DNA from: Blastocystis hominis | Lineage: Eukaryota; Sar; Bigyra; Opalinata; Blastocystidae | Length of the DNA stretch: 64,000 nt | Reading direction: 5' to 3' | Assembly (NCBI RefSeq): GCF_000151665.1 | Contig: NW_013171815.1 | Span: 1,501,153-1,565,152 of the forward strand | Part shown: positions 5,197-34,896 of the stretch, piece by piece | Layout of the letters: each line of letters opens with the position of its first letter | How positions within the stretch are numbered: the first letter of the stretch is position 1 | Translations under genes and position numbers: made by a program | The notes under the pieces: generated by a model | Told to the model about the DNA's origin: nothing | The model's database searches: none | The model's input: only the letters and a program-made list of their open reading frames with translations

Positions 5197-5204
5197 AACA
5201 AACA
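5197..5204 (-). terminator. TGTTTGTT 3'-end motif abutting an encoded TGA
   Basis: Exact octamer on the minus strand. The encoded TGA of the neighbouring gene (5209-5207) begins exactly five bases upstream, the same place where T or TG sits in genes without an encoded stop. Confidence 0.75.
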
Positions 5205-5206
5205 GA

Positions 5207-9331: not shown

Positions 9332-9537
9332 TTTATTCGTATCGACGACAAACGAACAATAGACAAACAATCTATGAAATTTACGGACTGGGAACGTTAA
9401 TCACTTTGGGATATACTTCTACTTTATGCACCCTAATAATTTGGGCCTAACTTTCACGCGGTTTTCCTTCGGTTCTTGCTGGAACGAAAAAATGCCGATT
9501 ATTTGCTATTTTCGAAAGTTGAAATATCTCGCTAAAC

Positions 9538-10791
9538 ATGAGTGAGCCTGCTGAAAAAAGCTCGGAAACGGGCGAGGCTGCACAGAGCACAGACAAAGTC
9601 AAATCTATTGAGGAAGTCGATCAGCTGATGAGCTTGAACAAAGAAAAAGTGAACGTGGCTGCATGTAGGACTGCTTCTAAACGATTCCATTGTAGTAACC
9701 GAGCTAGGATCGAAATACATGCTTCCTACCGAAATTGGAACTCTCATTTCAAATCTATCAAGTATAAAGTATACCACAGACCCATTCATTGAATTGTACT
9801 ATTTTTACAAGACCATGGAGCAGAACGACGCTTCTTTCAAGCAAAATACTGGAAATCCGTTCTTTGACTATCGGACAAAGGAGGCGATCGCATCTCGAAA
9901 TGAGTTGCGTAGAATCGCGTTCCTGAACTCGTTCGATTCAAAAACATTGGGAGTCACGGAGTACCGAGATTTTCGAAAGCAAGCAAAGCAGCTAGAATTC
10001 GAGATCTTGAGTCTAGACGAAGATGAGTCTTCCAAAGAGCTTCACATTCGCCTGTTGAGTCAAATCGAAGTACTCTCCACGTGTATTTCCATTTTCATCT
10101 AGTCCGGCTACTCGGACATTCTCAAAATCGAGCGATGCCATCTGCGTCTCGACAACTCGACCAACAGCTTTGCCCAGGCGTTTCTAAAACACGTTTGACC
10201 TCCTCTCTCCACCCACCCTCAGGACATCGAAGAGGCCCACCACCACCTTCTGAAAGCGTTCTCGATCGACCGCTCGAGCACCGGGCAGCTCTCCGTGAAG
10301 CCGAAGGGTCTGCTGCGCGTGCTGAGCTACCAGAAGGGGAAGAAGCTTCTGCTCGCCGCGGCTCCGTTCTTTACGAAGGAGGTTTGGAAGTGTCTGCTGT
10401 CCATCCTCATCCCCTATCTACTGATTTGGACCGGCGATGAGGCGCAGCGCGAAGTCACCGACCGCGTGCTGCGGACCATCCAAAGCTATCTGGAGAGCGA
10501 GCAGGCCGATCTGAGCTTTCTCACCGCGGTTCTGAACTCGTTTATTCAGCAGAAAACATATCCTTGTTTTTATGATGTGGGGAAGAGGCCTTGATTCACG
10601 GAGGCGATTATTCCGGTGCTGCTGCAGTCGGAGAAGTACGCTGGGCTGATTATTGCGCTGCTGAGTCGCGGAGAAAAGATAGCGAACGGATCGGAGGGGG
10701 ATGCGGGAGAGAGTTGTAGTCAGGAGCTTGCGGAGGAGTGGAAGGGTGTGGTCTCTGTGCTGAACGCAAAGTTGGCGAAACAGAGCATGTG
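9538..10791 (+). CDS. PAT1: PAT1-like decapping activator; stop completed by poly(A)
   Basis: C-terminal Pat1-type helical protein that links deadenylation to decapping. Starts at 9538 (MSEPAEKSSETGEAAQ). Introns of 31, 33, 30 and about 27 nt. The region from RNELRRIAFLNSFDSKTLGV through QIESGYSDILKIERC to the helical repeats after DIEEAHHHLLKAFSID follows the Pat1 C-terminal superhelix, including the Y..LL.IE segment. It is short (about 370 residues) and lacks the long N-terminal region of yeast or animal Pat1. No stop is encoded in the last exon before the 3' motif: the codon TGG at 10790-10792 has T five and G four bases upstream of TGTTTGTT, so poly(A) addition after either makes UAA or UGA. 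Reading on would run 29 codons into the next gene's start. Confidence 0.82.
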
Positions 10792-10794
10792 GAC

Positions 10795-10802
10795 TGTTTG
10801 TT
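10795..10802 (+). terminator. TGTTTGTT motif completing the PAT1 stop
   Basis: Exact octamer. In-frame T at 10790 and G at 10791 are bases -5 and -4 relative to it. Confidence 0.85.
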
Positions 10803-10837
10803 GGAACTATTTCTTTCATCTCATTCTTTTTGTGATT

Positions 10838-11873
10838 ATGAATCCCCATTTGAAAGCTCTTGAAACAGACATATCCTAATCCGATTTAAGCAGACGAATT
10901 CCTTCACAAGAACGTTTTGTACCATTTTGGATTAGATACCTCGATGGATCTGAAAAGTGAGTTTGGAGACTGCAGAGTAATCCGTTCGGAACAAGATTCG
11001 ATTTAGTTTGTGATAATGCAAGGAAGTGCAGACCGAACAAAAGATCTTGCGAATTTCTTTCATAATTCGTTAGAGTTGCCGTTTGGTGGAAAGGAAATTG
11101 GAAAGACCGAACGTTACTCGATGTGCCAACTTTTGGTATAATTTTATCGGTAGGTACAAGGTGGGAAAGATCCTGTGTGTGAGTCATGGGATGGGCATGC
11201 CCTCGTTGAGTATAGCTCTCAATGAAGTGTACAAGCTTCTTCACTACGCTGGTTGCCTTGACAAATGTACTTTCATTCGCTGTGGTACATGTGGGGGCAT
11301 TGGCGTAGCTCCTGGAAGTGTGGTTGTATCAACAGAATGCTGTGACGCTGATCTCAATCACTTTTACACACAGTCCGCGCTTGGCAAAGTACTTCTTTGC
11401 ATCTTTTTGTACCACAAAGCACTACCAATACCCTGCGATCGCTGATCCCGAAGTGGTTCGTCACCTCCAATTGCTCGCCGAAGAGAACGGAATCCCCGTG
11501 GTGTCCGGCGTTACTCTGTCTGCTGATGGATTCTACGAGGATCAAGGTCGCACAGACGGTTTCTTCTGTGAGTAGGGAAGTGCTTTCAGTGTGATGTGAA
11601 GGTACGAGGAGGCGGACAAGTTCTCCTTTCTGCAGAAGCTCCACGCTGCGGGCGTGTGCAACATCGAGATGGAGGCGCTGCTGTTCCTGGCGTTTGCTCG
11701 ACGCGCGGGTGTGAAAGCGGGCGTGGTCTGCACGGTGATCGTGGATCGACTGAAGGTTTTTGTGAGGAAGAAGCGATGACTGATAGGGAGATCAAGTCAC
11801 ATCCACTGCAGAGGAATTGGAAGAGTTTATGTGCGCGAACTGGAAGTTGCTGAGTCATTTTGTGTGTGAATAA
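10838..11873 (+). CDS. UPP: Uridine phosphorylase
   Basis: Cytosolic nucleoside phosphorylase: uridine plus phosphate to uracil plus ribose-1-phosphate (pyrimidine salvage). Spliced residues ERYSMYKVGKILCVSHGMGM match the family segment around D/ERY.MYK.G..L.ISHGMG, and the following IRCGTCGGIGVAPGSVVVST is the phosphate/nucleoside-binding GT.GGI...G region. Later FYEDQGRTDGFF and VCNIEMEALLFLAF (NIEME binds ribose) are also typical. Introns of 30, 31, 31, 30 and 31 nt. The first exon is unresolved: homology starts by 10890, but from the only upstream ATG (10838) the frame meets TAA at 10877 with no GT donor between. The ATG at about 10952 would remove conserved residues. Stop TAA at 11871, with TGTTTGTG nearby. 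Confidence 0.85.
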
Positions 11874-12041
11874 ACGAGTGGAACACTCCGTATGTTTGTG
11901 TCAGTCAATCATTTGAACGATCAATCAATCGAATAAAAAATCAATCGAATGATCAATCAATCGAATAAAAAATCAATCCATCCTATTCCTTTTCGTTCTC
12001 ATGTCGAGCCAATCTACATCACGCACTCGATTCTTTTTAGA

Positions 12042-12049
12042 AACAAACA
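12042..12049 (-). terminator. TGTTTGTT motif completing the eIF4G-like stop
   Basis: Exact octamer on the minus strand; in-frame T (12054) and G (12053) lie five and four bases upstream. Confidence 0.85.
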
Positions 12050-12052
12050 CGC

Positions 12053-14193
12053 CATTCGTACTCCAAGCTATTCAGGAACTCCTGGATCTGGAAAACTGTA
12101 TCGCTCAGCCGGATATCCGCCTGCTTCTTCACTACGCCTCACTCTCCTGCCCCATTCCCTACGAGCACTCGACTCCTGATCCTTCCACTCCTCCAGAGCA
12201 TCCGGATACACGAGATCGTTCTCAAACGCAGAGTAGAACAGCGCCTCCAGCAATCCGCGCGGCTGGCCCACCGAATCCCAGAATCGCACCATCTCGTTCA
12301 GCAGCTCCACGTGCTGATCCATCTGCAGTCCGTCCCAGAAATTGCGAATCAGCAAGCCGTAGTTGTCCGCCACGAACGGCAGGAAGTGGTAGAAATTGAC
12401 CTCCATCTTCCCGTCCTCGCGCTTCTCCACCAGCACCAGCTGCATCGGATCGTTCTCGCCCAGGATGAACTTCAGCAGCACTCCCATCAGTCCTACGCTT
12501 CACGCCTCTTCTCCGCGTCTACGCGTGTCCTTCTCCAGACCCGCCTGATCCACCATCTCGCTCAGCTCCTCGCCCATCGCTTGCGTCTGCAGAATCTCCA
12601 GGAACTTCGCCTCGTCCTTTATCGGCTTCGCCGCTTCCTCCTTCGCCGCTTCCTTCACCTCCGGCTTCTCCGACTTCTCCAGTTTCTCCGGTTTCTCCGG
12701 TTTCTCGACCTTGGCGTCGGCGGATTCGCGCGAAGGCACGTGCTTGATCAGCTGGTGCATGTCCAGAGCCTTCACGATCTCATCGAAGTTCGCGGCGACG
12801 GCCTCCATCTTGGAGCTCTCCAGCGAATCGGCGTCCAGATAGCATCGCTGCAAGGCCTGCTCGATCATCTCGCTGGACACCAAATCGCCGATCTGCTTGA
12901 AGAACAGACCCAGCGTCATGGCCATCTTGCTGCTCACTTCCTTCCGCTTCAGCACCAGCTTCAAGATCTGCACCACCAGCGGGAACACCTGCGTTTCATC
13001 GCCCTGCCTCCGCCTACGTCCTGCTTCTTCGCCTTCTCCAGCATGTTCTCCAGGTCCTTGCTCTTCGGCGCGCTCAGCTGCTGGTTCAGCGCCTCCGCCA
13101 GCTGCGCCACGCGGTTCTCGGGGAGCGTCGCGGCCGGAACGTCGCTGTAGCTCGCCGCTAGGATCGATTTCCGCGCCCATTCCTACGCAAATCCACGCTC
13201 CACGCCACCGTGAAGGTCGCTTTCGGCGCGCGCTCTGCGGACTGATTGCCGCTGCTGCTGCCGCTCGGTTCGGGCGCTTTGGTGCGTCGCTCCTGCAGCG
13301 CGTGGTCGCGCGCCTGGAGATCCTTCTGCGTCTGCTCGATGCGCTCCTGGTTCTTCTTGGCAGCGCGCTCTTTCAGCTGCTCCAGAGTCAAATTCTGCGT
13401 GAGAAAAACCCGAACACGCCTACGGAGTCGTTCTCGTCAGAAGAGTCGAAATTCAGAATCGAGAACTGGTTCTGGCCAGGACGATAGTCACTAGGGATGA
13501 GCAAAAAGGAGAGAAAGGGAGTACGGAGGATTCAGATTTACGGGATCGCGGCTTTCTTTGTCTGAATCAGGTTTGGATGGACTGTCCTGCTTGCGAGCAC
13601 GAGGAATATACTTTGAACGACCGCCCGGTCTGGAGTAATAATCGCGTGGGGACTCATCGTCTCTGTAGTGGTCACGGTCCCGGTTAAATCCCATATCATC
13701 GTCATACGCATGTGGACGATAACGATACTTACTACCAGATCCATGACCGTAATTTGAACCGCCATGTCTATAGCCCATATTCTGGGGGCTGTTTTCTCTA
13801 TTCACTTCTTCGGAGGCAGAGTTCACAGGATTGGCCGGTTTCTTTACTCTCCAATCAGCGCTGCTGTCCGCTTCCGACATAGTGTCTAAGAGGGAACAAT
13901 GAAAAACGCAAATTACTTTGATGACGATAATTACCTCCATTTCGGCCTCTATCATTGTAGCCACCACGATTGTTATAATGCGAACCACCCATACGTTGAG
14001 AACCGTATCCAAAACGATTGCTAGGGCCACGGTAACGCGGTTCATCATAGTCACCTCCATTTTTCCAGCCTCTGTCGAAACGATGCCCACTTTCTGGCGG
14101 ATATCGGTCTTCCTCAGGCTTTTCACCGTTGGCGTTATTCATACTCTTATCCAGAGCATACGTTAACGAAAATTCTCCAGGTTTTCCAGACAT
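12053..14193 (-). CDS. eIF4G-like translation factor (W2 domain) with no recognised MIF4G; stop completed by poly(A)
   Basis: Start at 14193 (MSGKPGEFSLTYALDK). Introns of about 49, 34, 29, 29, 29, 30 and 37 nt. Order seen: an N-terminal Gly/Arg/Tyr-rich region (SNRFGYGSQRMGGSHYNNRG, later RPHAYDDDMGFNRDRDHYRD), a charged coiled coil (LTLEQLKERAAKKNQERIEQ), a helical region that may be a divergent MA3 domain (TLGLFFKQIGDLVSSEMIEQ), an EKPEKPEKLEKSEKPE linker, and a W2 domain whose end (LLEALFYSAFENDLVYPDAL, EEWKDQESMKKQA) aligns with the eIF4G end LLRMFFDALYDED...F..WE. I could not find the central MIF4G domain that binds eIF4A. The last codons are ...LNSLEYE then TGG at 12054-12052, five bases before TGTTTGTT, so UAA/UGA is completed by poly(A). 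Alternative: another W2 protein. Confidence 0.75.
12658..12711 (-). repeat. Coding 9-bp tandem repeat (EKP-type) in the eIF4G-like gene
   Basis: Successive near-identical nonamers encode EKPEKPEKLEKSEKPE, an in-frame linker between helical domains. Confidence 0.7.
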
Positions 14194-14316
14194 TTAACTC
14201 AGAATTGACAATATGTTCCTTATGGTTCGATATTAAAACATACAAATAATCGCGGAAACTCACAAAAATGATAAAATAGGCATGATTTTTGCACTTTTTC
14301 CTATTTGTTATTTGAA

Positions 14317-15720
14317 ATGGATTTACAATATTACAAAAAGCTTGTTTTTGCTATTCTCGGCATCTACTCCATATATTTATGCTTTGGGCTTGTCCAGGAA
14401 AAGATGTTTGTCTGTACACTGGCTTTTACGTAGATATCGATATGTCAGTCCGAGTGGAGCCCGATTTGAATACACTTCTGTGCTTCTTTTGATACAGACA
14501 ATCATCAACTACACCATAGCATCGCTAAGTATGATTCGGATGATTTTTATGATTATAGTATTGAGTATTACAGGGAAAGAAAACAAGAAGTTCAGTCTAC
14601 AGATTCCGAAGAAGGATCTTGTGGGAAGAATGGCAATATATAGAGTAAAAGACAAAGAGTAGGATTTATTCATGAAAAAAAGAGCATAGTGAGGAATGTA
14701 TTATTCGCGATGTTGATGAGAAATCTGGCGTTGTACTACTCTCGTTTAGTATGTTTGGAAAGGACACATACAACAAACCCGTGAAAGATGTGGAGGTTTT
14801 CCTGTGTTATCTTTTTCGATCGTGTAGCACATTCACTTCAGAAGGGATGTACTTTCGGATTACTGGATCTACGGTGTCTGCTACACTTTGGCAATGATAT
14901 TTTCGAATAATGCCTTAAAGGTATTTTCTGAAATAACGAGCTCAATTTGCAGCATGTTACTTATCCGACACAAGTCCTAGCGAAGTCGTGTAAAATGATC
15001 CCTGTGATGCTCGCGGGCACGCTCTTTGGAAGTAGTTCTACGGTCCATATTTTCCATAGCCCGTAAATATTCCATCCGGAAGTATATCAGTGTCCTCATC
15101 ATGACGGTGGGCATCATCTGTACTCTCTCTTCTTTCCCCTGCTTTCCTAGTGTTCCAGCTTCTGAGCAACAAAAAGAAGGTGAGCACGTCCTCGAACAGC
15201 AACCTCGGTCTGCTCCTCCTTGTACTTTCTCTCTGCATGGACGGCGTCTGCGGCATGCAGCAGGACGTCGTCGTTCCTCGCTTCAAACCCTCCAGCTTCC
15301 GCCTGCAAGTCATGCTCAACGTCTACGGCATGATGATCGCGCTGGTGGCCTCTCTGTTCAGCCAGGAGCTTCTTCCCGGGCTGCGTTTCCTCCTCGAAAA
15401 CCGCGTCTGCTTGCTGGTAGCGCCGCGCTTCGCTCGTTGAATCGTAGTACTGCCTGGTGTACGGCGTGTGCAGCTCGGTGGGGCAGATGTTCATCCTCTT
15501 CACGGTGCGGCATTTCGCGCCGCTGGTGCTGTCGACGATCACCACGACGCGCAAGTTCTTCAGCATTCTGCTCTCCGTGGTATTTATGGGCAACGAAATC
15601 ACCTGGGGACAGGTAGATTGGAGCTGGTGCTTCCTGAGCTCTCTAGTGGGTCGGCGTCTGCCTCGTGTTCTTCGGAATCGCCTTCGACAAGCTGGCGCGC
15701 GGCAAGGAAAAGCGGGATTG
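14317..15720 (+). CDS. Nucleotide-sugar transporter, SLC35B family; stop completed by poly(A)
   Basis: Golgi/ER antiporter of the SLC35B group (UDP-sugar or PAPS; substrate not decidable by eye). Starts at 14317 (MDLQYYKKLVFAILGIYSIY). At least nine introns of 28-38 nt. Recognisable segments: CFGLVQEKI at the end of helix 1; YWIYGVCYTLAMIFSNNALK; HVTYPTQVLAKSCKMIPVML, the family's YPTQVL.K..K.IPVM core; GTRKYSIRKYISVLIMTVGI; then GQMFILFTVRHFAPLVLSTI, TTTRKFFSILLSVVF and GNEITWGQW. A polar loop after the second helix is longer than usual. The final codons are KEKRD then TGC at 15719-15721, with T and G five and four bases upstream of TGTTTGTT; no stop is encoded for over 100 codons beyond, where the frame enters antisense of the bZIP gene. 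Confidence 0.85.
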
Positions 15721-15723
15721 CGC

Positions 15724-15731
15724 TGTTTGTT
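15724..15731 (+). terminator. TGTTTGTT motif completing the SLC35B stop
   Basis: Exact octamer; in-frame T (15719) and G (15720) lie at -5 and -4. A variant TGTTTGAT for the convergent gene sits 2 nt away on the other strand (15734-15741). Confidence 0.85.
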
Positions 15732-15734
15732 CCA

Positions 15735-17867
15735 TCAAACACAACAAATCGAATGAAGCACCGACAGCAGCTTCTCCGCCGAGCAGCTCGTTTTGGTCAA
15801 TGCTGGCAACTCCCCGTGCCGTACCTCCGTTCCCCCAGTTCCCCCAGTTTCCCCAGTCCCCAAAGTTTCCCCGGTTTCCCCGGTTTCCCCGGTTTCGGTA
15901 CGTCTCGCGCGTCTGGCCTCCGCTTCGTCGCCTGGCGTCGTTTCTGCCTCGCTCTGCGCAGCGAATCGCGCGGGCACTTGCTCCAACTCCGCGAGGCAGC
16001 GGTCCGAATCGTTCAGTAAAAACTCCGCCAGCGCGAAAATCTGCTGGGACGAGAGAAAGGAGGTCATCATGGAGAACAGCCCGCTGGCTTCCTCCGTCGT
16101 CGTTTCGGTGAGGCTCTGCAGCTCTGCGAGCAAACTAGGCGTCAACGACTCCTCGAACGCGGACTGCGAAGCGGAAGTGAGGCTTGCCGCGGGAGTCATC
16201 AACGGGCTCGATCGCATCACCATCCCGCTCAGTTTCTGGTAGTTCAGCGTGCAGATCTGCCGGATTTTGGCCTCCTGCTCGGGCCCCAGCTTGAAGTACG
16301 AGATGAACTTCGGCCAGAACGAGAAGGCGCCGCTGCACTGAACCTTCCCGCCATCGCGTACCTGAAATCGGAGGGATGCTTCGGCTCGTTGTTGACGACC
16401 TTCCGGCTGCCCGAAACCGTCTGAATGCATTCGGTGTACCGTCGAAAAAACACGGGATCCTGCGATGAAGCCTCCCCTCCGCTTCCTACGCGCGAAATCA
16501 GCCACAGCGTGAAGCGGCTGTAGAACGGACAGCACAGCGATTTCAGCTCGTTCCAGACGAACAGGCTGTGCTCCTGCAGCTCCACGCTTTTCGGATTCAG
16601 CAGCGCAAGCAAGCGGCGCGTCGCCTGGTCTTCCTACAATTCACGCCGCTGCCAAAGCGAACGCTCGCGTTTTGATGGTAATAACACGCGTACACTTGCT
16701 CCCGGAAACTCGCCGCGATCCGATCCAATCGGTTTCGCTTCTCCGTGTCCAGCTCCTGAATGATTTCGCTCACCTTGCTGTCCAGAAGCTGCTGATATTG
16801 CTTTCGACGCTTCCGACTTTTGCGCGCCGATTCGCGGTTTCGCTCCATTTTCTCGCGCTTTTTGTCTTCCGGTCGCTGTGGAACCGCGCTTTTCTCCGGT
16901 TCCACGGTTCCACTTTCTTTGTAGCTCGAGTCGTCCAGCGTGGGCGCAAGAAACGGACCTGTCGCTATCCCCGCGGAACTCGATACGCCCACCGACGCAG
17001 ACGACGTCGGGAGTTTCTGCGATAAAATGGAGGGGAAACCCCCCTGCGGATGGACAGCATAGTTCAACCCGCTGACTACACTCACACACAGCTCCTGTGT
17101 TCTACAATCGTGTTCCATCACGGAAAGCTCGCTAATTCTGCCATTCCCAAAATCGAGGTCTTCGCGAACAGGAGGCATTTCGTTGAAAAACTGGTTGAAA
17201 AAGGAGGGATCGCGGCTGCTTTCGCGATCGGGTTTATCGACAAGATCGGGCTGACCCGATTCATTGAATGATACAGGCATATTGGTGTTGGATTGTCCCC
17301 AATCTGTAGTAAGCGAGGATTCTCCGACTCCGAAGGGAGGAAATAAACTTACACTGCTGGCTGTTTGCCGAATTGAAGGAAGCTGACTCGAAACTAAACG
17401 ATTGGAAAAGGAATTGCGAGAGTCGTTGGCCGCATAGGGATCCGTATACATGTTCTCTGCAGACTCAAATACCGCAGAAGGACGGTTAGTTCCCATCATT
17501 AAGCCCGAGCTCAGAAAGAATTGACTGCCCATCGATAGCCGCAATGGAGATAAGTTTTCCATGCTGCGTCTCCCCTATATATTCAAATGGCTCCTTTCTC
17601 CTACGTCCAGTTTGTCATCACCTAGATTAAGCGGTTCGGCTCCATCAATTTTTGGAACTTTCGATGAATGGGTTCCTCCACCGAAAAAAGAACTATCCGG
17701 ATAGCCCTCAGAAGCGCGATCAGTAGATATGATGGAAAAACTCCCATCTATAATTAAATATTGCATTAGAAACCAATACTCATCTGCTGACCATTTTGGT
17801 TTCCAGAATTGTGATTGCCCGACATATCACCCGGTTGCAAGGGTGGAGTCTGACTATGAGTACTCAT
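15735..17867 (-). CDS. bZIP transcription factor with long C-terminal helical region
   Basis: DNA-binding regulator. Start at 17867 (MSTHSQTPPLQPGDMSGNHN); introns of 32, 30, 29, 30 and 38 nt. A long serine/asparagine-rich, probably disordered, N-terminal half precedes the basic region KREKMERNRESARKSRKRRK, which has the N-x7-R spacing that contacts DNA, then a zipper-like helix (QLLDSKVSEIIQELDTE). After it comes a helical domain (RRLLALLNPKSVELQEHSLF, SFWPKFISYFKLGPEQEAKI) of the kind seen after bZIPs in stramenopiles, and a low-complexity ETGETGETGETLGTGE tract. The encoded TGA at 15735-15737 lies inside a variant motif TGTTTGAT; the earlier in-frame TGT at 15746-15744 is at -5, so poly(A) may end the protein three codons sooner. 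Confidence 0.85.
15828..15897 (-). repeat. Coding 9-bp tandem repeat (GET/GTE-type) in the bZIP gene
   Basis: About seven nonamers (plus-strand unit TTCCCCGGT and variants) encode ETGETGETGETLGTGETG. Confidence 0.75.
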
Positions 17868-17915
17868 CTTGACCTGGAAGTTGCTTTTTTAAAAAAGCGA
17901 TTCAAAAATCGGTCA

Positions 17916-17923
17916 AACAAACA
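17916..17923 (-). terminator. TGTTTGTT 3'-end motif of NAA30
   Basis: Exact octamer on the minus strand, 13 nt beyond the encoded TAA. Confidence 0.7.
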
Positions 17924-17936
17924 CACAATGACAACT

Positions 17937-18537
17937 TTACCAATAACTACTCACTGTAGGGAAATACACATTTTCTAGTTGTAAAATAAGGCGGTACGCC
18001 GAGTTTCCGTTCTGATAGTAGCGAGGAAGATACTCTGTGCGTCGGAACCCAAGGCTCTCGTACAAATTCAATGCGCCGATATTATCCACCTCTGTTTCGA
18101 GATAGCATTCACTAAATTTCAAACGGATCATCTCGTTAATGGAGCGAATTGTTAAAGCTCTCGCTGGAAGTCAGACAAAAGTCACAGAAATACCAATTCC
18201 TTTGCCTCTGTATTCAGGAATCACTGACAGCATTCCAATATATCCAAGGGGACGTTTTACAGACATATCAAGCATACAGACGCATACGCCCACCATTTTT
18301 CCATCTTGGTTTCTCGCCTACAGCATCAAAAACAGGAAAAACACGAACAGTCCAGGTAATACTGGTAACACTCCTCAGAAAGAAATGGTATGTGAACGAC
18401 GAATAAGACTCGCTCAGTATCGAATCATTTAGCTCTTTAATTTCCGAAACCTCCTCATTTCCCTGAAACTTGTGAAAGGAGATCCCTTCGATCTCAATCT
18501 CCTCAGGCATGGGCAGAAGCGCAGTAGTCTCTTCCAT
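17937..18537 (-). CDS. NAA30: NatC N-alpha-acetyltransferase catalytic subunit
   Basis: GNAT-fold enzyme that acetylates N-terminal methionine of proteins starting Met-hydrophobic. Start chosen at 18537 (MEETTALLPMPEEIEIEGIS). Two short introns (about 25 and 30 nt) restore the fold: GKMVGVCVCMLD and RPLGYIGMLSVIPEYRGKGI, the acetyl-CoA-binding R/Q-x-x-G-x-G/A loop (YRGKGIARAL), then CYLETEVDNIGALNLYESLG, FRRTEYLPRYYQNGNSAYRL. The LETEV.N..AL.LYE.LGF.R...L.RYY.NG pattern is characteristic of NAA30/Mak3. About 165 residues, slightly shorter than fungal Mak3. The last residues (YFPTVSSYW) are extra. Confidence 0.9.
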
Positions 18538-18570
18538 CCCACAATACGAACACCAACTCAAAATGTATCT

Positions 18571-18578
18571 AACAAACA
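18571..18578 (-). terminator. TGTTTGTT motif, probably for V-ATPase H
   Basis: Exact octamer on the minus strand about 100 nt beyond the V-ATPase H stop; it lies just upstream of the NAA30 start. Confidence 0.5.
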
Positions 18579-18677
18579 CTCGTCGTAATTCACTGTTCCC
18601 TCTTCCATCGTCTTACAAACTACCCTTCCTTACTCCCTGCCTACATCGAGCTACCACTCACCCCCCTCTTGTCTCCC

Positions 18678-20332: not shown

Positions 20333-20512
20333 AATTCCTTAAGGCTGCAGAATCTGCGACTAAGTAATCATAATTCGTAGAAACAGAGAACCATTTTCAG
20401 AAGAACCCGACAGTTTCGCATCAGAACCGCGGGATACCGCTAATTCCATTCTCCTTTATTCTTGTGTTTCAAACAAAAAGAAATAGTATGATCCGCTTTA
20501 AAAACACATTCA

Positions 20513-21904: not shown

Positions 21905-22397
21905 AGAAATATCAACAGAGAAATATCTGCTATTTTTGCAGCTGTAAAAACAGGAGGAATTTTCAGATAGATTGAAATGTCCGTATATTCGCTTTTCAAT
22001 ATGAGTGTATTACTAATATAAGGGGTCATCAAATTGAACAAGTCCTATTACTTGTTTCCATTCCTTTTTCATATTTTTATACAGTCTTTGGGAGGTTTTC
22101 ACTCGCGTCCTTGAAAAGGGTAAGTAAATGAGGTTTTATCGAATGTCTGTTTCTATGATGACTTTTTGAGCGTATGTCAGATGCCCATGATGACGTCTTT
22201 GAGATCTGAGAAACTAGGCTTGTTTGCAATAGAATGAACTAATGGTGTTTAGAGGACTTTGCGCTGGTAATCGTGTATTTCTTGTGTGTTGTTTGTTTTT
22301 ATACATGTGTTCATTATCAATACCAATACGGGCTTGATATTGTGGTGCGTTCTGGCGTCGTTCACTGCTTCCTGTGAATCTACCACTATTCCTTTGA
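21905..22397. other. Intergenic interval with an orphan 3'-end octamer
   Basis: About 490 nt between the divergent Msp1 and FKBP starts. I see no coding exon. It holds an exact TGTTTGTT at 22290-22297 on the plus strand with no recognised gene upstream. Confidence 0.5.
22290..22297 (+). terminator. Orphan TGTTTGTT
   Basis: Exact octamer without an identified gene ending before it; chance occurrence or the end of an unrecognised transcript. Confidence 0.3.
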
Positions 22398-22958
22398 TGA
22401 AGTATACACTCGTTCTTGCTGTATTCTTATTTGCGCTGGCGGTATCCCAGGAATATTCCATGGGAACTTTAGAACAGCCCAAAGCCGATTTGCCTGTTGA
22501 TGCGGAGTTGGTCATTCAGAACATTGTAATCCTCGGTCCACTTCGTTTACAATTAGTACACTCCTGGAGACTGCACGCAAAAGGCAGTGAAGGGAAATAT
22601 CGTGAATGTACACTACACTGTAGCCTTCCATCTTTGAATGTAATTTATAAGGGATACCTTTACAAGAATGGCAAGAAATTCGATTCTTCCTTTGACAGAA
22701 ATACTCCGTTCTCCCTGAAACTTGGAGCAGGACGTGTTATTCGTGGATGGGAAGAGGGTCTTCTCGGCATGTGCCCAGGGTATTTATGTGAATACTCAGT
22801 CATTTTGTAGTGAAAAGAGACGTCTTATCATTCCTGCCAATATGGGATATGGCATGAGAGGCGCTGGTGGCGTGATTCCTGGAGGTATGGTTTGTGTCTG
22901 GCTGTTATTGTGTAGGCGCTACTCTGGTATTTGACGTGGAATTGGTCTCAATGAAGTG
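22398..22958 (+). CDS. Secreted/ER FKBP-type prolyl isomerase; stop completed by poly(A)
   Basis: Peptidyl-prolyl cis-trans isomerase of the secretory pathway. Start 22398 ([20 protein letters not shown]), a clear signal peptide. Introns of 31, 32, 31 and 31 nt. The FKBP core is complete: [57 protein letters not shown], then [19 protein letters not shown]; residues Y, D, F, V-I, W and Y of the active-site pocket are in place. About 144 residues. The last codons are ATG AAG, then TGC at 22957-22959, whose T and G are five and four bases before TGTTTGTT; cleavage there gives UAA/UGA. With no cleavage the frame stays open for 16 codons and runs directly, in frame, into the ATG of the next gene at 23005. 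Confidence 0.92.
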
Positions 22959-22961
22959 CTT

Positions 22962-22969
22962 TGTTTGTT
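22962..22969 (+). terminator. TGTTTGTT motif completing the FKBP stop
   Basis: Exact octamer; in-frame T (22957) and G (22958) at -5 and -4. Confidence 0.87.
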
Positions 22970-23004
22970 TTATCAAATTAATTTGTATATTGGTGGTAGT
23001 TATC

Positions 23005-24412: not shown

Positions 24413-24510
24413 TCTGTTTCATTTTATTAAGCAAGCAAAGCAAACAAAGCGAGCAAAGCAAACAAGCTCAGGAAGCACACATATAAACAAGCTAAGGAAG
24501 CAAGTTTACA

Positions 24511-24518
24511 AACAAACA
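24511..24518 (-). terminator. TGTTTGTT 3'-end motif of enolase
   Basis: Exact octamer on the minus strand, 18 nt beyond the encoded TAA; the flanking 24420-24530 is AAGC/AAAC-rich low complexity. Confidence 0.7.
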
Positions 24519-24536
24519 GACAAAGAGAATGCTTCT

Positions 24537-26092
<1,556 letters not shown>

Positions 26093-26187
26093 AGAACTAA
26101 AAACAAAAAAACTGAGAGAAAGAACAATGAGGAACTTTACAAAGAATTTTCGCATCTTTCATTTCTCAAACAATTCCACTAAACAAA

Positions 26188-28036
26188 TTACAAAGAGGCC
26201 ACACACGACTTTTCCAGCTCGCAAATCAGCAACTCGCCCATCTCCACGCTCCTTCGCGTCTTCTCATCCTTCATCTTCTCCACAATCTGCTTCACGATTT
26301 TCTCATACTCCTCTCCCGTTCCTCCATATTTCCCAAACACCCTCTCCTCAATAATCCTGCACAGAATCACATCTTCCGGACTCTGCAGCACGCCTCGCAA
26401 CTCCCCCAGCCGTTTCTTCCGTTTTTCCGCGGATTTCGCATCGAACTTCGCATCTACTCTCCACTCTCTTCCCTCCACCCACCCTCCAGCTCGCGCCTCG
26501 CCAACTCCTCAAACGACGTCTCCGCGAAATGCCGCTGCAGCTTCCTCTCCAGCAGACTTCGCAGATTCCCCGCGAATTCCCGCACCGTCTCCACACTACA
26601 TGAAACGCCCGCCCTGCCATCACTTGTGTCGCTCCAGCAACGCGACGATCTTGCACACCACGCAGCGATACGGCTCCGAGAACGTCGAGAACCACTGCGA
26701 TCAAGCCTCGCAATTATTTCTACCGCGATTCCGTTCTTCAGACCGTTCTTCACGCTCGTTAAAACAGGGACTTCCTCCGCGATTCCCGTCTCGTAGAGTT
26801 CTTTTAGAAGGCGTTTCACGTGCAGCATCGCTTCTTCTTCGCTGATTCGATCGAACGTTACTTCCGAACCGCGGGAATTCCCCCCTTTCGACTTCCCGGA
26901 ACCCGTTTTCCGTTTCTTTGGGGAGATCTTCGCGTCGTCTTCGCCCGGCGATCGACCCAATTGACCCAATTGACCCGATTGACCCGATTGACCCGATTGA
27001 CCCGATTGACCCGATTGACCTGACATCTGCGACGAAGATCGCAGTAACCGGCTCGCGCCGCGCTTCAGTCCGCGCCGTTCCTCCGGCTCGCCATCGCGAC
27101 CGCTTTCCCCGCGGCCAAGCGGCTTCCCGTCGCGTTCGGAGGCGGGAGACGAAGACAGAGAGCCGGCTCGGCTGCGTTTCGCGGGGATTCCGGGCTTGCA
27201 GACCCCGCAGAGACCGTTCCAAACGCAGTGCGGAACACATTGCTTGTGGTACACTAGATCGGAGAATCGTGGAAACGTGGAACCTGATAGACATTGTGGA
27301 TTGGTGCATCGGAAGTAGGACTTCTGCTGGAAGTGCGTTTCGGTCTGCGGAACGCCCGGGTCGCCGCATTTGATGCGAATATCGGCACGATCCAAATCAT
27401 CGATGGGCTTGTTGCAAACGATGCAATAGTCTGAGCGAAGAAGATCGTCATCAACCATGGTAGCTACACGTGATATTCAGTGGGGGAGAAAACGGTAGCG
27501 GATACGACAACGTTCAAGTCGAGAAAGCTCGCTATCCTGGGGGTGAGAGAACACTACAACAAACAAATACTCGCTTCGCTCGTAATATAAAGGAAGCGTC
27601 GATGCCTTTATTGGCTTTGTAATCGTTGTAATAGTCTTCGAATGGGTAGCAAATATCCTTAACCCCAACAACTTGACTAAAAAATTAAATTAATACGACT
27701 CAAATACGATGAATCCCTGTCATCGAAGAATTGGGCAATAAGCCGGTTTTGTGTTTTTTTCTTATTTAGTTTCAACATAGAAGATAAAGATGGAGACAAC
27801 CACTGAGGATGCAGCACAATTGCTGGCCAAAAAGGATAATCAAAAATTTTCAACCAAACCACTTCTCCGTATCTATTTATTAGACTGTCTACATGCAGTT
27901 ACAAATGACGAATCACGATGTTAGCGTCATCCTCTCGAAATGGATTGACAATAGTAGTGGAAGGCTCTTCTTTGACTTCCACCTCCCTTTTCTCGGGTTC
28001 TGCCTATTTGTTATCGTCAAATCGAAATAGAACCAT
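26188..28036 (-). CDS. PWWP - zinc finger - TFIIS-like chromatin/elongation protein
   Basis: Read as one gene. The ATG at 28034-28036 is followed immediately by a 30-nt intron, then AEPEKREVEVKEEPSTT and a PWWP domain (LYGEVVWLKIFDYPFWPAIV, RLIAQFFDD). The frame closes at TGA 27477, only 18 nt before the next ATG (27458), and an in-frame intron of 42 or 48 nt joins the two. Then comes a PHD-like zinc-binding region (YCIVCNKPIDD, IKCGDPG, YFRCTNPQC, HKQCVPHCVWNGLCGVCK), a basic linker with (GQS)n, and a TFIIS-type helical region (VREFAGNLRSLLERKLQRHF, KKRLGELRGVLQSPEDVILC). Such combinations read histone marks during transcription elongation; that role is inferred. Alternatively these are two tightly spaced genes. 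Encoded TAA starts five bases before the variant motif TGTTTAGT. Confidence 0.7.
26953..27020 (-). repeat. Coding 9-bp minisatellite, (GQS)n
   Basis: Seven to eight tandem nonamers (plus-strand unit CCGATTGAC, two copies with CCAATTGAC) encode GQS/GQL units between the zinc finger and the TFIIS-like region. Confidence 0.85.
27558..27565 (-). terminator. TGTTTGTT inside a proposed intron of the PWWP gene
   Basis: Exact octamer on the minus strand within a 34-nt intron. If used it would truncate the mRNA after the PWWP domain, but no T or TG codon start lies at -5. Confidence 0.4.
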
Positions 28037-28090
28037 TATTCTGCCTGATTATTAGAATTCCTAAATTCGATTTTCACAAAGACTTTCAGT

Positions 28091-30173
28091 ATGTTCAGAA
28101 AACAAACGGATGTCTTGCTTCAGACAAAGTCTTTCATCAAAAAGAAGGATGCAAATGAGTTGAGAAATCAACTTCAGTATTGCTTCAAAAACTACACGGC
28201 TGAGGCAGACAAAGCGGTCTTTTGCAGTTCTGATGTATGAATCGCTGACCGAATCGATTATTTCTAGAAGATTGAGCTCCTTCGTTTTAAGACGGGAGTT
28301 TGTGTATACAAAGATAAGACCGGAGAGCCTCTCATCATATTGACAAAGGAAGGACGCTATTACCCGACTAGTACATAAACGTTCGTCTTTTTGACCTAGT
28401 ATTTGCTCTGTGGAAGGCTCCCACCATTGTTCCCACGATCTACACCAACTCCTATGTCAGCAAGCGAATTATGGACGGAGCCGCTCTCATGGCTCCAGGC
28501 ATTATCGTTCCTGTATTCGCAGTCGGCGTATCTCACCAATCAGGAGGAAGGACTTCCCTCTCTTCTCCTCAACACGGTCGTATGCATCGCCGTCGAAAAT
28601 AACCCACTTCCTTTTGCTGTTGGATATATCAGTGTCAACAATTTCCAAGAAGCCGTTTCTTCGGGAGTTTCATTTCTTTCTGCCGTGCATTGTAGAAAGG
28701 CCGTGTGATCGAGATTATTCACACAGTCTACGACAGTCTCTACGAAGAGTTTGCTGCCAATCGAGTCCATTTTTGGCGGTATTTTTCATTCTAGTCTTCG
28801 CCTCCCGGTTTTTCTCCCCTTGCCATTCTCCCCATTCTCCCCGCGGAACCCGCGGAATCCGCTTCTTCAGCCGAAGAACCCGCGGAACCTGCGGAACCCA
28901 TGGAATCCTCAGAGCCCACCGAACATGCTGAGAGTCCCGCGGAACTTGATTCGGCTCCCGCCTCTGCGAGTGCGATCCCCGCGGGGAATTCCGTTCCGCC
29001 TGATAGTGAAACGCCCTTCAGCGTGAGCGAATCGACGATGGACGAAGAATTCAAAAGCTTGTGTCTCCGCGTAGAATTTGTGGGATCCCACGATGTAGTG
29101 TCTGAGCGACGTGAGGGAGGAGGAGCTTCCCATGCAGGTGTCGACGTTCAACAGCAAGTATCTGCGGAAGGCGGAGTATATCAATCGGTTTGCAGCGAGT
29201 CCGTATTGTGGAAACGGAGAAAGATGTTGAGGCGTAGATTGCGGCGATGTGGCCGACGCGAAGGGACTGCGATGGGAGAAGACCTCGTTTAAGAAATTGC
29301 CCGCACTGATGGCGTGCTTGAGCGAGATGAAGCTGATCACGCTGAAAACCATCGCGAAGCAGTTGGTTCGGATTGGACGGCGGTTTTATTCTAGACAATT
29401 CTCTCGCTGAACCAGCAGCATGAGGCTCTGCTGCAGTATCGCGCTTATATCGCCAAGAACAAACGGGAAACTCCCGGAATGGCGAGAAAAGACGACGACG
29501 ATGACGGAGACGGTCCCGAAGTCTCGCAGAGCGCGCTTTATCGAGTGAGCGGGTTTTTAAAGGGGCTGTTTATGGCGATGGGATGCGATCCTGCGGGGTT
29601 GTACTCGCTATCCGATGCTCGGAGAGTTTTGCAGGATTACATAAAGGAACGAGACTTGGTATGCGCTGAGAATCCGCAGAACGTGGTAGATGTTGGGGAG
29701 ATGGGTGATCGACAGAGACTGGATGAATTACTGGTGGACGCAATTTACAGAGATAAGAAAGTGCCGGAAAATGGATTTCCAATGGAATTGTCAAGAGCGG
29801 AGTTGGTGAAATTGTTTACAGAGAGATTACTTCCGTACCATTGCGTTTCTGTGAATGATAAAGTCGTTGTGAAGAAGGGAAAGTGCCAGAAGATCGAGAT
29901 CGTCACTCAGAAGATGAAGGGGGCCCATCGGGAACTGACATTGGTGTATAACACTTCCGACTTTATGGTAAACACGAAAGAATTGATAACAGCACTGGCG
30001 AAAGCATGTGCATCAAGGTAATCCTATTTTCCACTTTGAATGCTAGTTGCTGCGAGAAGAGCGGACCTACAGGAAATTTCATTCAAGTCCAGGGCAAGGT
30101 AGCACCCCAAGTTAAGAATGTTCTGATAAAACAGTTTAAGATTCCCTCCAAGCAAATTGACGTTAAAAAGTGA
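28091..30173 (+). CDS. EIF2D: Translation factor eIF2D (ligatin)
   Basis: Non-canonical initiation and recycling factor that delivers or removes tRNA at the 40S P site. Start 28091 (MFRKQTDVLLQTKSFIKKKD), only 54 nt from the divergent PWWP gene start. About nine introns of 28-37 nt; the one in the AEP-rich tract (after 28780) is not exactly resolved. Domain order matches eIF2D: N-terminal DUF1947-like and PUA region (LIFALWKAPTIVPTIYTNSY, NPLPFAVGYISVNNF, KGRVIEIIHTVYDSLYEEF), an acidic linker, a SWIB/winged-helix region (MQVSTFNSKYLRKAEYINRF, EKTSFKKLPALMACLSEMKL), and the C-terminal SUI1 fold (LPYHCVSVNDKVVVKKGKCQ, KIEIVTQKMKGAHRELTLV, PQVKNVLIKQFKIPSKQIDV). Encoded TGA at 30171-30173. Confidence 0.9.
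28842..28902 (+). repeat. Coding 9-bp repeat (AEP/AES) in eIF2D
   Basis: Nonamers of the form CCCGCGGAA encode SAEEPAEPAEP, in the acidic linker of eIF2D. Confidence 0.65.
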
Positions 30174-30342
30174 GCGATTTTGGGTTTTTCTCTTTGTTTT
30201 ATTCACAAATTGATGAGGAAATATAATATTGAGGGGGTACGATTTCCGATTATTTATTTACTGTATAAGTGCATAGCCAGCCCTTTGGTCGCTTTGCTTT
30301 CTTGATTTGCCTAGAAAACTATTTCAAGAGTCTAAATTAATA

Positions 30343-30763
<421 letters not shown>

Positions 30764-30794
30764 TCTCTTTTTCAGGTCTTGGAATAGTACAATT

Positions 30795-30802
30795 TGTTTG
30801 TT
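30795..30802 (+). terminator. TGTTTGTT 3'-end motif of eL43
   Basis: Exact octamer 31 nt after the stop, within a short palindrome TTTGTTTGTTAAACAAAG. Confidence 0.7.
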
Positions 30803-31613
30803 AAACAAAGAAATAAACGGGGCATGTGGTAATGGGTATGGAAGAAGGAAATAGTAGCTCTTTCAGTCTTTTGCTGCTTCCTTTCTAACTACCCTTGGAG
30901 ATTTGAAAGCACGAAAGGAGCTGATATGATCAAAAAAGGGTTGTGGATGGAGTTTTCAAAAGGTAGAGATGGATACGTTTCGTTCATAGGCCCGCTGTCA
31001 TTCATCATAAATGTATGATCTTTTACGCTATGCTAATTTTCTCTTCCTTGATCCCAGATTGGGTTCGAGTGAAAATGCCTCGACACAATACAATTTTATT
31101 TCTGATAGACATAGCTTTCCTTGGATTGCCACTAGTATCGATTAGAATGATCACAGCTTACTTTTAGGGTTTTCTTGCTTATCGGCAAAATCCTATTTTG
31201 AATCACATCGAACAGCAATGTACATCGCTGCTGGCGACCGTATCGACGATATCCATTGTTTCCAATTCCATGTTTAAACAGGTGTTATCCATGACCTAAC
31301 AATACATATTGGCATGATATTCACTCTAACACCATTGCTATCTGGACACGAGAGTAAAACCCCGACAGACTCATCTTCGGAAAGATCTGCAGAGTTAGAC
31401 TCATTTAGACCCACAATCAATCAAGCAAACCTACCGATGTTGTTAACGGCGTATTCGATGTCCATAGAGCTTATTATTTGAACAAACAGCCAAAAACTAG
31501 AATACAAAAAATCACAAACTGGCCTCAAACCGCCTTATCTCTGACAGCCCCACAGCTCCATTCCGTATAAGTCGAATATACGCAATCATATTGCTAAGCG
31601 CCAAAATACATCC
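30803..31613. other. AT-rich intergenic region, no gene seen
   Basis: About 810 nt, no frame with family resemblance and no clear chain of short introns joining frames. Confidence 0.5.
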
Positions 31614-32640
31614 CTATCCCTCATTCTCCAACTCCATCCCCACTTCATCCGGCGTATCATAGCAATCCGAGAAGTTACAATTCCCAAAATCGATCAGATG
31701 AACGTCCGCTCGCGTTTCCCCTTCGCCCTCGTACGTAAACAAAAACGACGACGACCAGAACCTCCAATTCGACTATTTCTCATTCCTTCTGCGCTAATTT
31801 ACGCGTCGCACGATATCGCGGAGATTCAGAAGCTTCTCCAGAACGATCTCCAGAACATCCAGACGAAAGGAATTGCCATCAAAGAAGAACAAGGCGATCG
31901 CCAATAACATCGATTTGGCTACCAGCGATTTGCCCCATTCTTTATCTTCGATTAGCCAGTCGTGGCTTTGCGGACGGTAAACCTATCGTGAAGAAGATTC
32001 AGAGTGATTACGCGCATGCCACACACACGCATCCCGAGAGAGCCGGAAGTGGTGGACTGACACATGCGGTTGTGCCGCTCGATTTTCTGTGGAGGCGCTC
32101 CGTCCCCTTCAGATGAGTGAAGAGAGAAAGAAAAGTACAATAGGTACGCGTGCCGATTTTCACGTCTAAAATACAGGGATGCACATAAGATTTATTCAAA
32201 TCTTCCAAAACTAAATAGCCGTTCAAAATGGGCTCACTATGGAATGAAGTGCATGCCAGACAATTACTGCTGAAGAAACTCAGAACTTTCTGAAATATCA
32301 TCGTCCAAGTGCAGGGAATACCGTAAACCCTCAGGTCTACACAAGGGCTCATTTGAGGGAGATATAATCTGCAATATTATAGTATAGAACAAACGAAACT
32401 TCTATAGGTTGGAGGCCAAAATAGGAAGCACTAAAACGAGCAAGATCCGAATTCGATCTCATAATTTGTTCATAACATGACCGCTCCTTTTCGGTTGCTT
32501 GCTTCGCAATCTATATATTCAGCAAAAAAGAGAGAACCTACTTTTCCATTGGGCAGCTTGATCATCTTGTTATGACCAGAAACACGATATTTATATTCAG
32601 ATGGCTGATGTAGTCGTAATACACCTTTGTCCATTTTCAT
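31614..32640 (-). CDS. Inositol polyphosphate kinase (IPMK/IP6K family)
   Basis: Phosphorylates soluble inositol phosphates using ATP. Start 32640 (MKMDKGVLRLHQPSEYKYRV). Introns of 31, 31, 39, 41, 29 and 30 nt; only after splicing do the family blocks line up: EYKYRVSGHNKMIKLPNGKI (ATP site), ATEKERSCYEQIM, LNGYLVLEDLNKSYVHPC followed by ILDVKIGTR (the PxxxDxKxG catalytic signature), QSTTSGSLGMRVCGMR (STS.SLG.R..G block), WSSSFLFTYEGE (SSSLL.VY) and DVHLIDFGNC (the metal-binding IDF). About 280 residues, typical of IPMK. Whether it is a multikinase or a hexakisphosphate kinase cannot be told. Encoded TAG at 31614. The neighbourhood is AT-rich and sparse. Confidence 0.88.
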
Positions 32641-33543
32641 TCTACAAAATATACTGACAACGTAAATATTTGACTATTTATGGAATTCTGAGAGATGAAT
32701 CTTCATAGTCTTTTCATAGAATTGTTTTTGCAAACACGTATATTTGATCTACTTCATTTCTAACTGCGAGACGGATGGAATAGGAAGATTGAAAGGGAAT
32801 ATCAAAGATAATTGAAAGTAGCAAGCATATCTATTGTTTATCAGTGTTAAAATGAGTTCCGTAGTGTAGCAAGTATGTCTATGTTGCTTAGATGAAGATT
32901 ACTTGGTAACTACACGAATTTGGAAGTAGGTGAATAGGTTCAGTAAATTTGGATAATTTTGCTTCGTTTTTGGTGAGTAAAATTACTTCTTACTGGTTGT
33001 AAGCACTCATGTTGTTATCATATTAAATCACTCTAATTTGTGCAATGTTCAAGTTTCAATGATTTAATGGATGCAACTGAATGATGATCATTCAGTTTTA
33101 GAATGGATCGTAGAGTAGTATAGAAGTTTGAACTGAAATGATAATATTATTACTATTTTGCACAAATAGATACTGGACACACATATAGATGTGATGATTC
33201 TGGAGTTGATGGTAATTGAAAACACCATCTATTCCCAACCTGTGCTTTCACATCTATATTGATAAGTGGTTTATTATTTGATCGACCCGTTTCATACACT
33301 TTACCCAGAATAGATGATAATAATCCTGCACTCATCCCTACTTTGATTCTACTTTCTACCAGAGTCAGTAAGGAGACAACAAGCCATCCACCGTGATTTC
33401 AGTCTCCGATTTCCTTCCAATCAGTATTTTGGAACAATTCAACAACGCTATTCCTATTATTCTACTTATCATCATTCAATCACAAATGAATTCGGAATGG
33501 ATCGTCCTCCCATCAACTAACCATCTACCTTATGATTCTTAGA
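32641..33543. other. AT-rich intergenic region, no supported gene
   Basis: About 900 nt. A 60-codon minus-strand frame (33153-33335) has no family resemblance and no splice partner that I could find. Confidence 0.45.
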
Positions 33544-33551
33544 AACAAACA
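33544..33551 (-). terminator. TGTTTGTT motif completing the SSUH2-like stop
   Basis: Exact octamer on the minus strand; the in-frame T at 33556 is at -5. Confidence 0.8.
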
Positions 33552-33555
33552 GAAA

Positions 33556-34896
33556 ACATAATAGTACAACAAGAAGAAAACATCTCCTCATAATATGGAG
33601 CATAAACTCTCAAATCGTTTCCATAGACCCAGAACACACAGCTCTTTCCTTTCCATGTCCCATAAGCCTCAATAATCGGTAGCTCGCTCACCATGAGACG
33701 TTGATTGTTTATTCTCCGCTTTTCTTCGATTTCTGCTCTTCTCTATTGATCATGTTGTCTCCCAATCGGAACCTTTGCTGCGCGATTCTCCAAGTCAAAA
33801 CACGTTTCCTGGATATCGCTGTTTTCAAAATCTCTCGGTGCCTGTAAATCCGGTCCTTCTTTTCTATGATGAATCATGCACCAGACGAATACTCGAAACA
33901 TAGCGATGACTCTGCATCACAAATAGGATCAGGCGGAATATCGCCTCCATATAAGACAAGAGATATATTGCTGTTATAATAGTTCACAGTGGCCTAGAGT
34001 AGAAGCATGCTTGCTTAGATTATACCATAACGAATCCTATCACATATCCTTTTCCCTGACACTCAGGACATTCCATTCTTCCTGTACCAGAACACCGACT
34101 ACACGTTTCAGTTGTGGTTCTACACTTTTAAAACAATACAATAGCCTTCATACGTGTGTTTTCCAGTTTCTGGGTCATATTGTGAACGGGTAACTGTTCC
34201 ACTACCACTGCAACTTGTACACGTCACTCTACAATGGCCACGACACTCAGGACATGTCTCTTTATGATCTGTATGTGGCCAGCGTATCGTTTTCCTTCCA
34301 CCCTTAAATCGAGTTGGGGGAGAGATCGGATATTCCCAAAGCTTTGGAATCGGACCATATTCCTCAGTATCCATCTATCAGTCATTACAAAGAATTCAGC
34401 TGAGATACCATTCTATTTATGTCTGCTCGGTAATAGTCACCGGCTGAGCGCTCCTCAGAGAAGATATCCCAAGAGCAGACATAGCAACTCCACATTTTAT
34501 TCTGATTGTGATTTATGATGAGTGCCTTACAATCGTTATATCCATTTCTTTTATTGCTCTCTTCGGCCAGCAACAGCTTTTACTGCTAAATAGTTGAGCA
34601 AGTGCTGCTCGTACGTCTTCTGTAGTAACTGAGCCCATAGAACAGGATTGCTCTTCATCAGCAGATTCTACTTATCAGATACTCACATAGAATACGTCTT
34701 TCGTTTGTGTTATGAGAAGCATCTACTGAGATAGAGACACCCTCTTCCGGATTGGTGGGATTCTTGTCTGTTTCATCCATTTGATCCATCTCTTGAATAT
34801 CCTGCTGTACTGGTTCGTTATTTGGAGAGTGTGCTGATGGAATCTAGAAACAATAATAAATTAAAAAATCAAGATTACTTGATTTGCAGAAGACAT
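33556..34896 (-). CDS. SSUH2-like protein with DnaJ-type cysteine repeats; stop completed by poly(A)
   Basis: Start 34896 (MSSANQIPSAHSPNNEPVQQ). Eight introns of 28-35 nt. After an acidic N-terminus comes SSKSCCWPKRAIKEMDITI, which fits the C-C-[WY]-G..A.EM.I segment of SSUH2-homologue proteins, then a region with W and P residues (IPKLWEYPISPPTRF) and zinc-binding CxxCxGxG-type repeats: CPECRGHCRVTCTSCSGSGT and CSRCSGTGRMECPECQGKG. The C-terminal part (INNQRLMVSELPIIEAYGTW, CVFWVYGNDLRVYAPYY) corresponds to the family's ...V..LPV..V.Y... tail. Function in animals is poorly known; the cysteine module resembles that of DnaJ chaperones. No stop is encoded before the motif: ATG is followed by TTT at 33556-33554, T at -5, so only UAA (not UGA) can be made. 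Confidence 0.75.

What the first reader, a model, noticed from the sequence alone, without database searches (positions are those of the whole stretch)
10790..33556. Stop codons completed by polyadenylation, with a fixed -5/-4 geometry
Five genes (PAT1, eIF4G-like, SLC35B, FKBP, SSUH2-like) have no encoded stop before an exact TGTTTGTT, and in every one an in-frame codon begins with T exactly five bases upstream of the octamer; in four the next base is G (TGGAC, TGGCG, TGCGC, TGCTT), in one it is T (TTTTC). Cleavage after -5 gives U+AA, after -4 gives UG+A. This mechanism is established for Blastocystis; what the window adds is the tight geometry, allowing either UAA or UGA from the same site.
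Basis: partly seen in the sequence, partly recalled or inferred. Interest (0 to 1): 0.85.

Follow-up and report, generated by a model that had tools for sequence, protein, structure and literature searches.

The report
Poly(A) tails completing stop codons
Five genes in this Blastocystis-like genome appear to stop just before a fixed eight-base signal and to get the end of their stop codon from the poly(A) tail, which is a real but already published feature of Blastocystis, spacing included.

Summary
All five sites have an exact TGTTTGTT, no in-frame encoded stop before it, and a codon starting with T five bases upstream. Family profiles end within three residues of that T for FKBP and, outside the window, for adenylosuccinate synthetase and a Steroid_dh protein. 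[quoted passage not shown] attachment base mainly U, commonest 4-mer UUUG (PMC4360255). TG at -5/-4 is a cleavage-site preference: G follows T in 20 of 29 ends with an encoded stop upstream and in 7 of 9 stopless ends, so it does not show a UAA/UGA choice; UAA is the expected product. Two small additions that I did not see in the papers found: an A-rich patch 10-15 bases after the octamer start, enriched at gene ends (found and tested on the same data), and four octamers inside genes, one in a transketolase frame and one in a predicted intron, with at most one A there. No RNA data were available.

The parts
9535..10789 (+). PAT1-like coding region (model, 4 introns), no encoded stop
   Evidence: weak match to PAT1 homolog 1
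10790..10790 (+). predicted poly(A) attachment base, first base of TGG read as U+AA
10795..10802 (+). TGTTTGTT poly(A) signal
12055..13489 (-). eIF4G-like coding region (model, 5 introns) ending FLNSLEYE, no encoded stop before the octamer
   Evidence: W2, E 0.002
12054..12054 (-). predicted poly(A) attachment base (codon TGG)
12042..12049 (-). TGTTTGTT poly(A) signal; in-frame TAA 10 bases after its start
15065..15718 (+). SLC35B-type (UAA transporter family) 3' coding part (model, 3 introns)
   Evidence: E 1.4e-31
15719..15719 (+). predicted poly(A) attachment base (codon TGC)
15724..15731 (+). TGTTTGTT poly(A) signal
22397..22956 (+). FKBP gene; FKBP_C profile complete to position 94 of 94, protein ends ATLVFDVELVSMK
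22957..22957 (+). predicted poly(A) attachment base (codon TGC)
22962..22969 (+). TGTTTGTT poly(A) signal
33556..33556 (-). predicted poly(A) attachment base (codon TTT)
33544..33551 (-). TGTTTGTT poly(A) signal; in-frame TAA 10 bases after its start
10805..10810 (+). A-rich patch at +10..+15 of the octamer (3 A of 6; the other four sites have 4, 4, 4 and 5)
5197..5209 (-). encoded TGA at -5 followed by octamer: cleavage after T would turn UGA into UAA
27537..27570 (-). predicted 34-nt intron of a PWWP-domain gene that contains an octamer (27558-27565); G at -5 is the donor G; no stop would be made

Best explanation
These are ordinary members of the published Blastocystis class. The pre-mRNA is cut after the U five bases before UGUUUGUU and the poly(A) tail supplies AA, so TGG, TGG, TGC, TGC and TTT all become UAA. 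The machinery prefers to cut between U and G, which is why T and G sit at -5/-4 at gene ends in general, with or without an encoded stop. Because the preferred attachment base U is also the first base of every stop codon, one reading frame gets a stop for free, so encoded stops could be lost there. Shown here: gene anatomy, open frames, homology ends, base statistics. Shown by others: cleavage position and tail addition in ESTs. Inferred: that these five genes behave the same in this organism, and the route of loss.
For: Octamer excess. Family profiles run to their last position within three residues of the T: FKBP_C 94/94, Adenylsucc_synt 416/416 (L028), Steroid_dh 150/150 (L010). Of 105 octamer sites (99 in the window plus 200 kb of the same contig, 6 in octamer-centred loci) 7 had a coding frame open into the -5 position (score at least 10 and 5 above the best encoded stop), and all 7 have T there. 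No second octamer with at most one mismatch lies within -60..+300 on the same strand of any of the 9 stopless sites. The stopless share, 9 of 62 classified ends (two of the nine added by hand), is close to the 15% published for subtype 7. Motif four nt downstream in 2,333 of 2,419 genes. Mutating the motif and two upstream T's cut reporter expression 324-fold (PMC6395660, passages).
Against: No RNA read was seen. The coding model did not call FKBP or the SSUH2-like gene (both 'none'). The C-termini of the PAT1-like and SSUH2-like proteins are not backed by a profile. Below the threshold there are -5 frames with another base: L016:8318 (C, 227 open codons, no call made) and window 27565 (G, explained as an intron donor). 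An octamer inside a transketolase frame (L025) is read through, and frames continue through those in L015 (cohesin-SA-like) and L017 (unidentified, weak coding score), so the octamer alone does not force cleavage. Genome-wide the octamer (7304) exceeds the same letters read backwards (5456) only 1.34-fold; in the 264 kb that control lies mostly within 30 bases of an octamer, 9 of 60 being clear of one.
Confidence: 0.93

Rival explanations
1. The site is a deliberate two-way switch: cleavage after -5 gives UAA and after -4 gives UGA, and G at -4 is kept in stopless genes as a safety net against a one-base slip.
For: 7 of 9 stopless sites have TG. About 4% of published sites have three or four motif substitutions and/or a spacing of three or five, so slips may occur.
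Against: G follows T at -5 in 20 of 29 sites whose encoded stop lies upstream; Fisher p = 1.0. Published products are 359 UAA and 13 UGA. The sample is small.
Confidence: 0.05
2. Some of the five use an ordinary encoded stop just beyond the octamer, which then lies in coding sequence.
For: In-frame TAA 10 bases after the octamer start in the eIF4G-like and SSUH2-like genes. Three octamers elsewhere lie in frames that stay open through them, one backed by a profile.
Against: No other octamer with at most one mismatch within 300 bases downstream. The three in-frame octamers have 0, 1 and 1 A in the patch at +10..+15, these two genes 5 and 4.
Confidence: 0.07
3. A further intron joins the last exon to a downstream exon with an encoded stop, the octamer being intronic, as in the PWWP gene at 27565.
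For: The PWWP gene shows that an octamer can sit in a predicted intron.
Against: FKBP (and, outside the window, adenylosuccinate synthetase and the Steroid_dh protein) reaches the last profile position within three residues of the T. Not excluded by a profile for the other four genes.
Confidence: 0.03

Closest known systems
Polyadenylation-created termination codons of Blastocystis (Klimes et al. 2014, PMC4159000; PMC5608401 of 2017)
   Same: Same octamer, same four-base spacing from the attachment base, no encoded stop, UAA product, similar share of genes.
   Different: Nothing established. The A-rich patch after the octamer and octamers left unused inside genes are not mentioned in the main text of PMC4159000 (read whole) or in the passages seen of PMC5608401 and PMC4360255; figures and supplements were not seen.
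Poly(A) site base composition of Blastocystis hominis (PMC4360255, 2014)
   Same: U at the attachment base, UUUG the most frequent 4-mer at the site (5.01%), motif starting at position 5.
   Different: Their logo covers 45 positions and ends about where the A-rich patch begins; their averages are over mapped ESTs, mine over genomic octamers. That the last G of UUUG is the tail-start position is my reading.
PAY* Tyr-to-stop conversion and mitochondrial U+AA stops (as described in the introduction of PMC4159000)
   Same: Tail completes the stop codon.
   Different: Those are alternative isoforms or organellar; here no stop is encoded before the site.

Membership tests
Blastocystis polyadenylation-created stops | no in-frame encoded stop before the poly(A) site | tested here: met
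   for 5 of 5 sites
Blastocystis polyadenylation-created stops | TGTTTGTT or close variant four bases downstream of the attachment base | tested here: met
   exact octamer with T at -5 in 5 of 5
Blastocystis polyadenylation-created stops | protein ends where homologues end | tested here: inconclusive
   met for FKBP (94/94); UAA transporter to 306/311; W2 weak, to 70/79; not shown for PAT1-like and SSUH2-like
Blastocystis polyadenylation-created stops | poly(A) tail attached at that base in mRNA | not testable with these tools
   no RNA data held
Blastocystis polyadenylation-created stops | genome is Blastocystis | tested here: inconclusive
Consistent, but no name was obtained.
dual UAA/UGA site | G at -4 enriched in stopless genes over genes with an encoded stop | tested here: not met
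   7 of 9 versus 20 of 29, p = 1.0; small sample

The most novel reading that the evidence does not exclude
The Blastocystis poly(A) signal is longer than the published octamer: U^G at the cut, UGUUUGUU, then an A-rich patch at +10..+15 that helps to mark which octamers are used. Octamers in introns or coding frames lack the patch and are ignored, which would let the same motif occur safely inside genes such as transketolase.
Probability: 0.4. Interest if true: 0.4.

Novelty: already known. Interest (0 to 1): 0.22.

Why it matters
It shows that the reported pattern is real and covered by print, and replaces the 'UAA or UGA' reading by a simpler one: the machinery's preference for cutting after U hands one reading frame a free stop. 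The practical value is for annotation: gene finders must be told to end such genes at the T. The A-rich patch, if confirmed, would help tell used from unused octamers.

Tried and rejected
UAA/UGA switch: rejected, because TG is about as common at ends with an encoded stop. All stopless sites being in the -5 frame: not remarkable, because 22 of 28 stop-making configurations among 36 ends with an encoded stop 8-60 bases upstream are in that frame, so 9 of 9 has p = 0.22. Association of TG with AA at +10,+11 across 105 sites: not seen (p = 0.46), a result against a single joint signal. A first codon scoring without introns (102 sites) called some sites that the later model did not, such as L023:6314 (T at -5). 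Two intron models were too permissive (7842 and 1038 introns) and were discarded; the third, with overlaps on both strands removed, gave 268 introns in 68 genes. A sixth stopless gene at 22290 was looked for and not found. Protein search for the PAT1-like protein: none of the 7990 candidates scored reached E 0.001. The eIF4G C-terminal part found no convincing structure (7 matches, E 0.046 or worse). Rfam: no match in the window at the gathering score. No paper held has both Proteromonas and polyadenylation. A search for newer Blastocystis genome papers listed none on a Blastocystis genome (9 papers). Genome-wide pattern counts for T at -5 could not be run.

Full report
Observation. The five sites are as described. 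The octamer is over-represented about elevenfold in the window, 26 against 2.35 expected. The five upstream pentamers match the finding, and the frame starting at -5 is open into the octamer in each. A genome-wide control cuts the other way at first sight: 7304 octamers against 5456 of the same letters read backwards. In the 264 kb in hand, 101 octamers stand against 60 such controls, of which 51 lie within 30 bases of an octamer and 9 do not, so the control is largely not independent.

Gene models. A small gene model trained on the window and 200 kb of the same contig gave introns of mostly 28-32 nt (221 of 268), donor GT followed by A in 0.56 and acceptor AG preceded by T in 0.72. With it the PAT1-like, eIF4G-like and SLC35B-type genes score better to the T at -5 than to any encoded stop within 250 bases upstream (sequences). 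FKBP and the SSUH2-like gene were not called by the model and were spliced under a flat codon score with the end set at the T. FKBP_C runs to 94 of 94 three residues before the end; the UAA transporter profile to 306 of 311; W2 matches weakly; PAT1 is a weak structure match; the SSUH2 name is unconfirmed.

More examples. Of 101 octamers in 264 kb two in (TTTG)n runs were left out; of L001-L008, L001 was left out as such a run and L002 as its overlap, leaving six. Of these 105 sites, 53 had an encoded stop within 250 bases upstream, 42 had no scored gene, and 10 had a coding frame running into the octamer: 7 in the -5 frame, 1 and 2 in the others. All 7 have T at -5. Four are outside the window: adenylosuccinate synthetase (profile to 416 of 416, two residues before the end), a Steroid_dh protein (150 of 150, last residue), a PTPA protein (292 of 293, but 38 residues before the end) and a CS-domain protein (domain at the start), so only the first two fix the end. 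Adding FKBP and the SSUH2-like gene by hand, 9 of 62 ends are stopless; the other 40 unscored sites were not gone through in the same way, except 22290, 27565 and 7404.

The three that break the pattern are octamers inside frames that continue. In transketolase (L025) the Transket_pyr profile aligns across the octamer and the coding score rises beyond it; in a cohesin-SA-like protein (L015) the frame and score continue but the last profile match ends before the octamer; in L017 the frame stays open, no family matches, and the score falls slightly. In none would a tail at the published spacing make a stop in frame. A fourth octamer, at 27565(-), lies in a predicted 34-nt intron of a PWWP gene.

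What TG means. T is at -5 in 55 of 99 sites and TG at -5/-4 in 35 of 99. In ends with an encoded stop at least 8 bases upstream, T is at -5 in 29 of 47 and G follows in 20 of those 29; in stopless genes G follows in 7 of 9. So TG belongs to the cleavage site rather than to stop making. This agrees with print: attachment base U, most frequent 4-mer UUUG, tail-start position G 35% and A 30%. At 36 ends with an encoded stop 8-60 bases upstream, T is at -5 in 22, TA at -6/-5 in 1 and TG at -6/-5 in 5, so UAA from the -5 frame is expected to dominate.

What is known. PMC4159000 (Klimes et al. 2014, whole main text read) reports the mechanism, the exact spacing in 2,333 of 2,419 genes, 372 stopless genes, 359 UAA and 13 UGA. 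PMC5608401 (2017, passages) reports 26% of genes in subtype 1. PMC4360255 (2014, passages and section 8) gives the base composition. PMC6395660 (2019, passages) gives reporter evidence. The geometry is therefore not new.

What may be new. At 51 gene ends A is at 0.71, 0.59, 0.39, 0.47, 0.57 and 0.47 at +10..+15 after the octamer start, against 0.45, 0.35, 0.28, 0.42, 0.17 and 0.40 at 40 sites without a scored gene (11 ends with a stop more than 60 bases away were left out). Mean A count is 3.20 against 2.08, p = 7e-5; at +25..+30 of the same ends it is 1.90, p = 1e-5. The stretch was chosen after looking at these same sites, so the p values are too good. At least three A's are found in 37 of 51 ends but also in 19 of 40 unscored sites. 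The 9 stopless sites have 3-6; the three in-frame octamers have 0, 1 and 1, and the intronic one, which is among the 40, has 1 by reading. TG and AA at +10,+11 are not associated across sites. For these reasons I lowered the probability of the longer signal from 0.45 to 0.40 on checking. A search for Blastocystis, polyadenylation and A-rich gave two papers; in one I read passages and saw no such patch named, the other (PMC6117058) I saw only in the listing.

Noticed in passing
L025:3705 (+): Octamer with T at -5 inside a conserved transketolase frame that continues through it, so the octamer is not sufficient.
   Followed up: partly
window 27558-27565 (-): Octamer inside a predicted 34-nt intron of a PWWP-domain gene.
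   Followed up: partly
L011:9677 (+) and L011:6061 (-): Two octamer sites with the same nine upstream bases and the same frame scores on opposite strands, suggesting an inverted repeat with a gene end in each arm.
   Followed up: no
window 5197-5209 (-); L010:4950; L026:1548; L027:2346; L026:2811; L010:1178: Six encoded stops overlapping -7..-5. In four (TGA at -5 twice, TAG at -6 twice) cleavage after -5 would turn the stop into UAA, the class Klimes 2014 describes; TAA at -5 and TGA at -7 would stay as they are.
   Followed up: partly
12042 (-) and 33544 (-): Both octamers are followed by TCTAA, giving an in-frame TAA as the fifth codon after the completed stop; 2 of 9 stopless sites, not tested against chance.
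   Followed up: no
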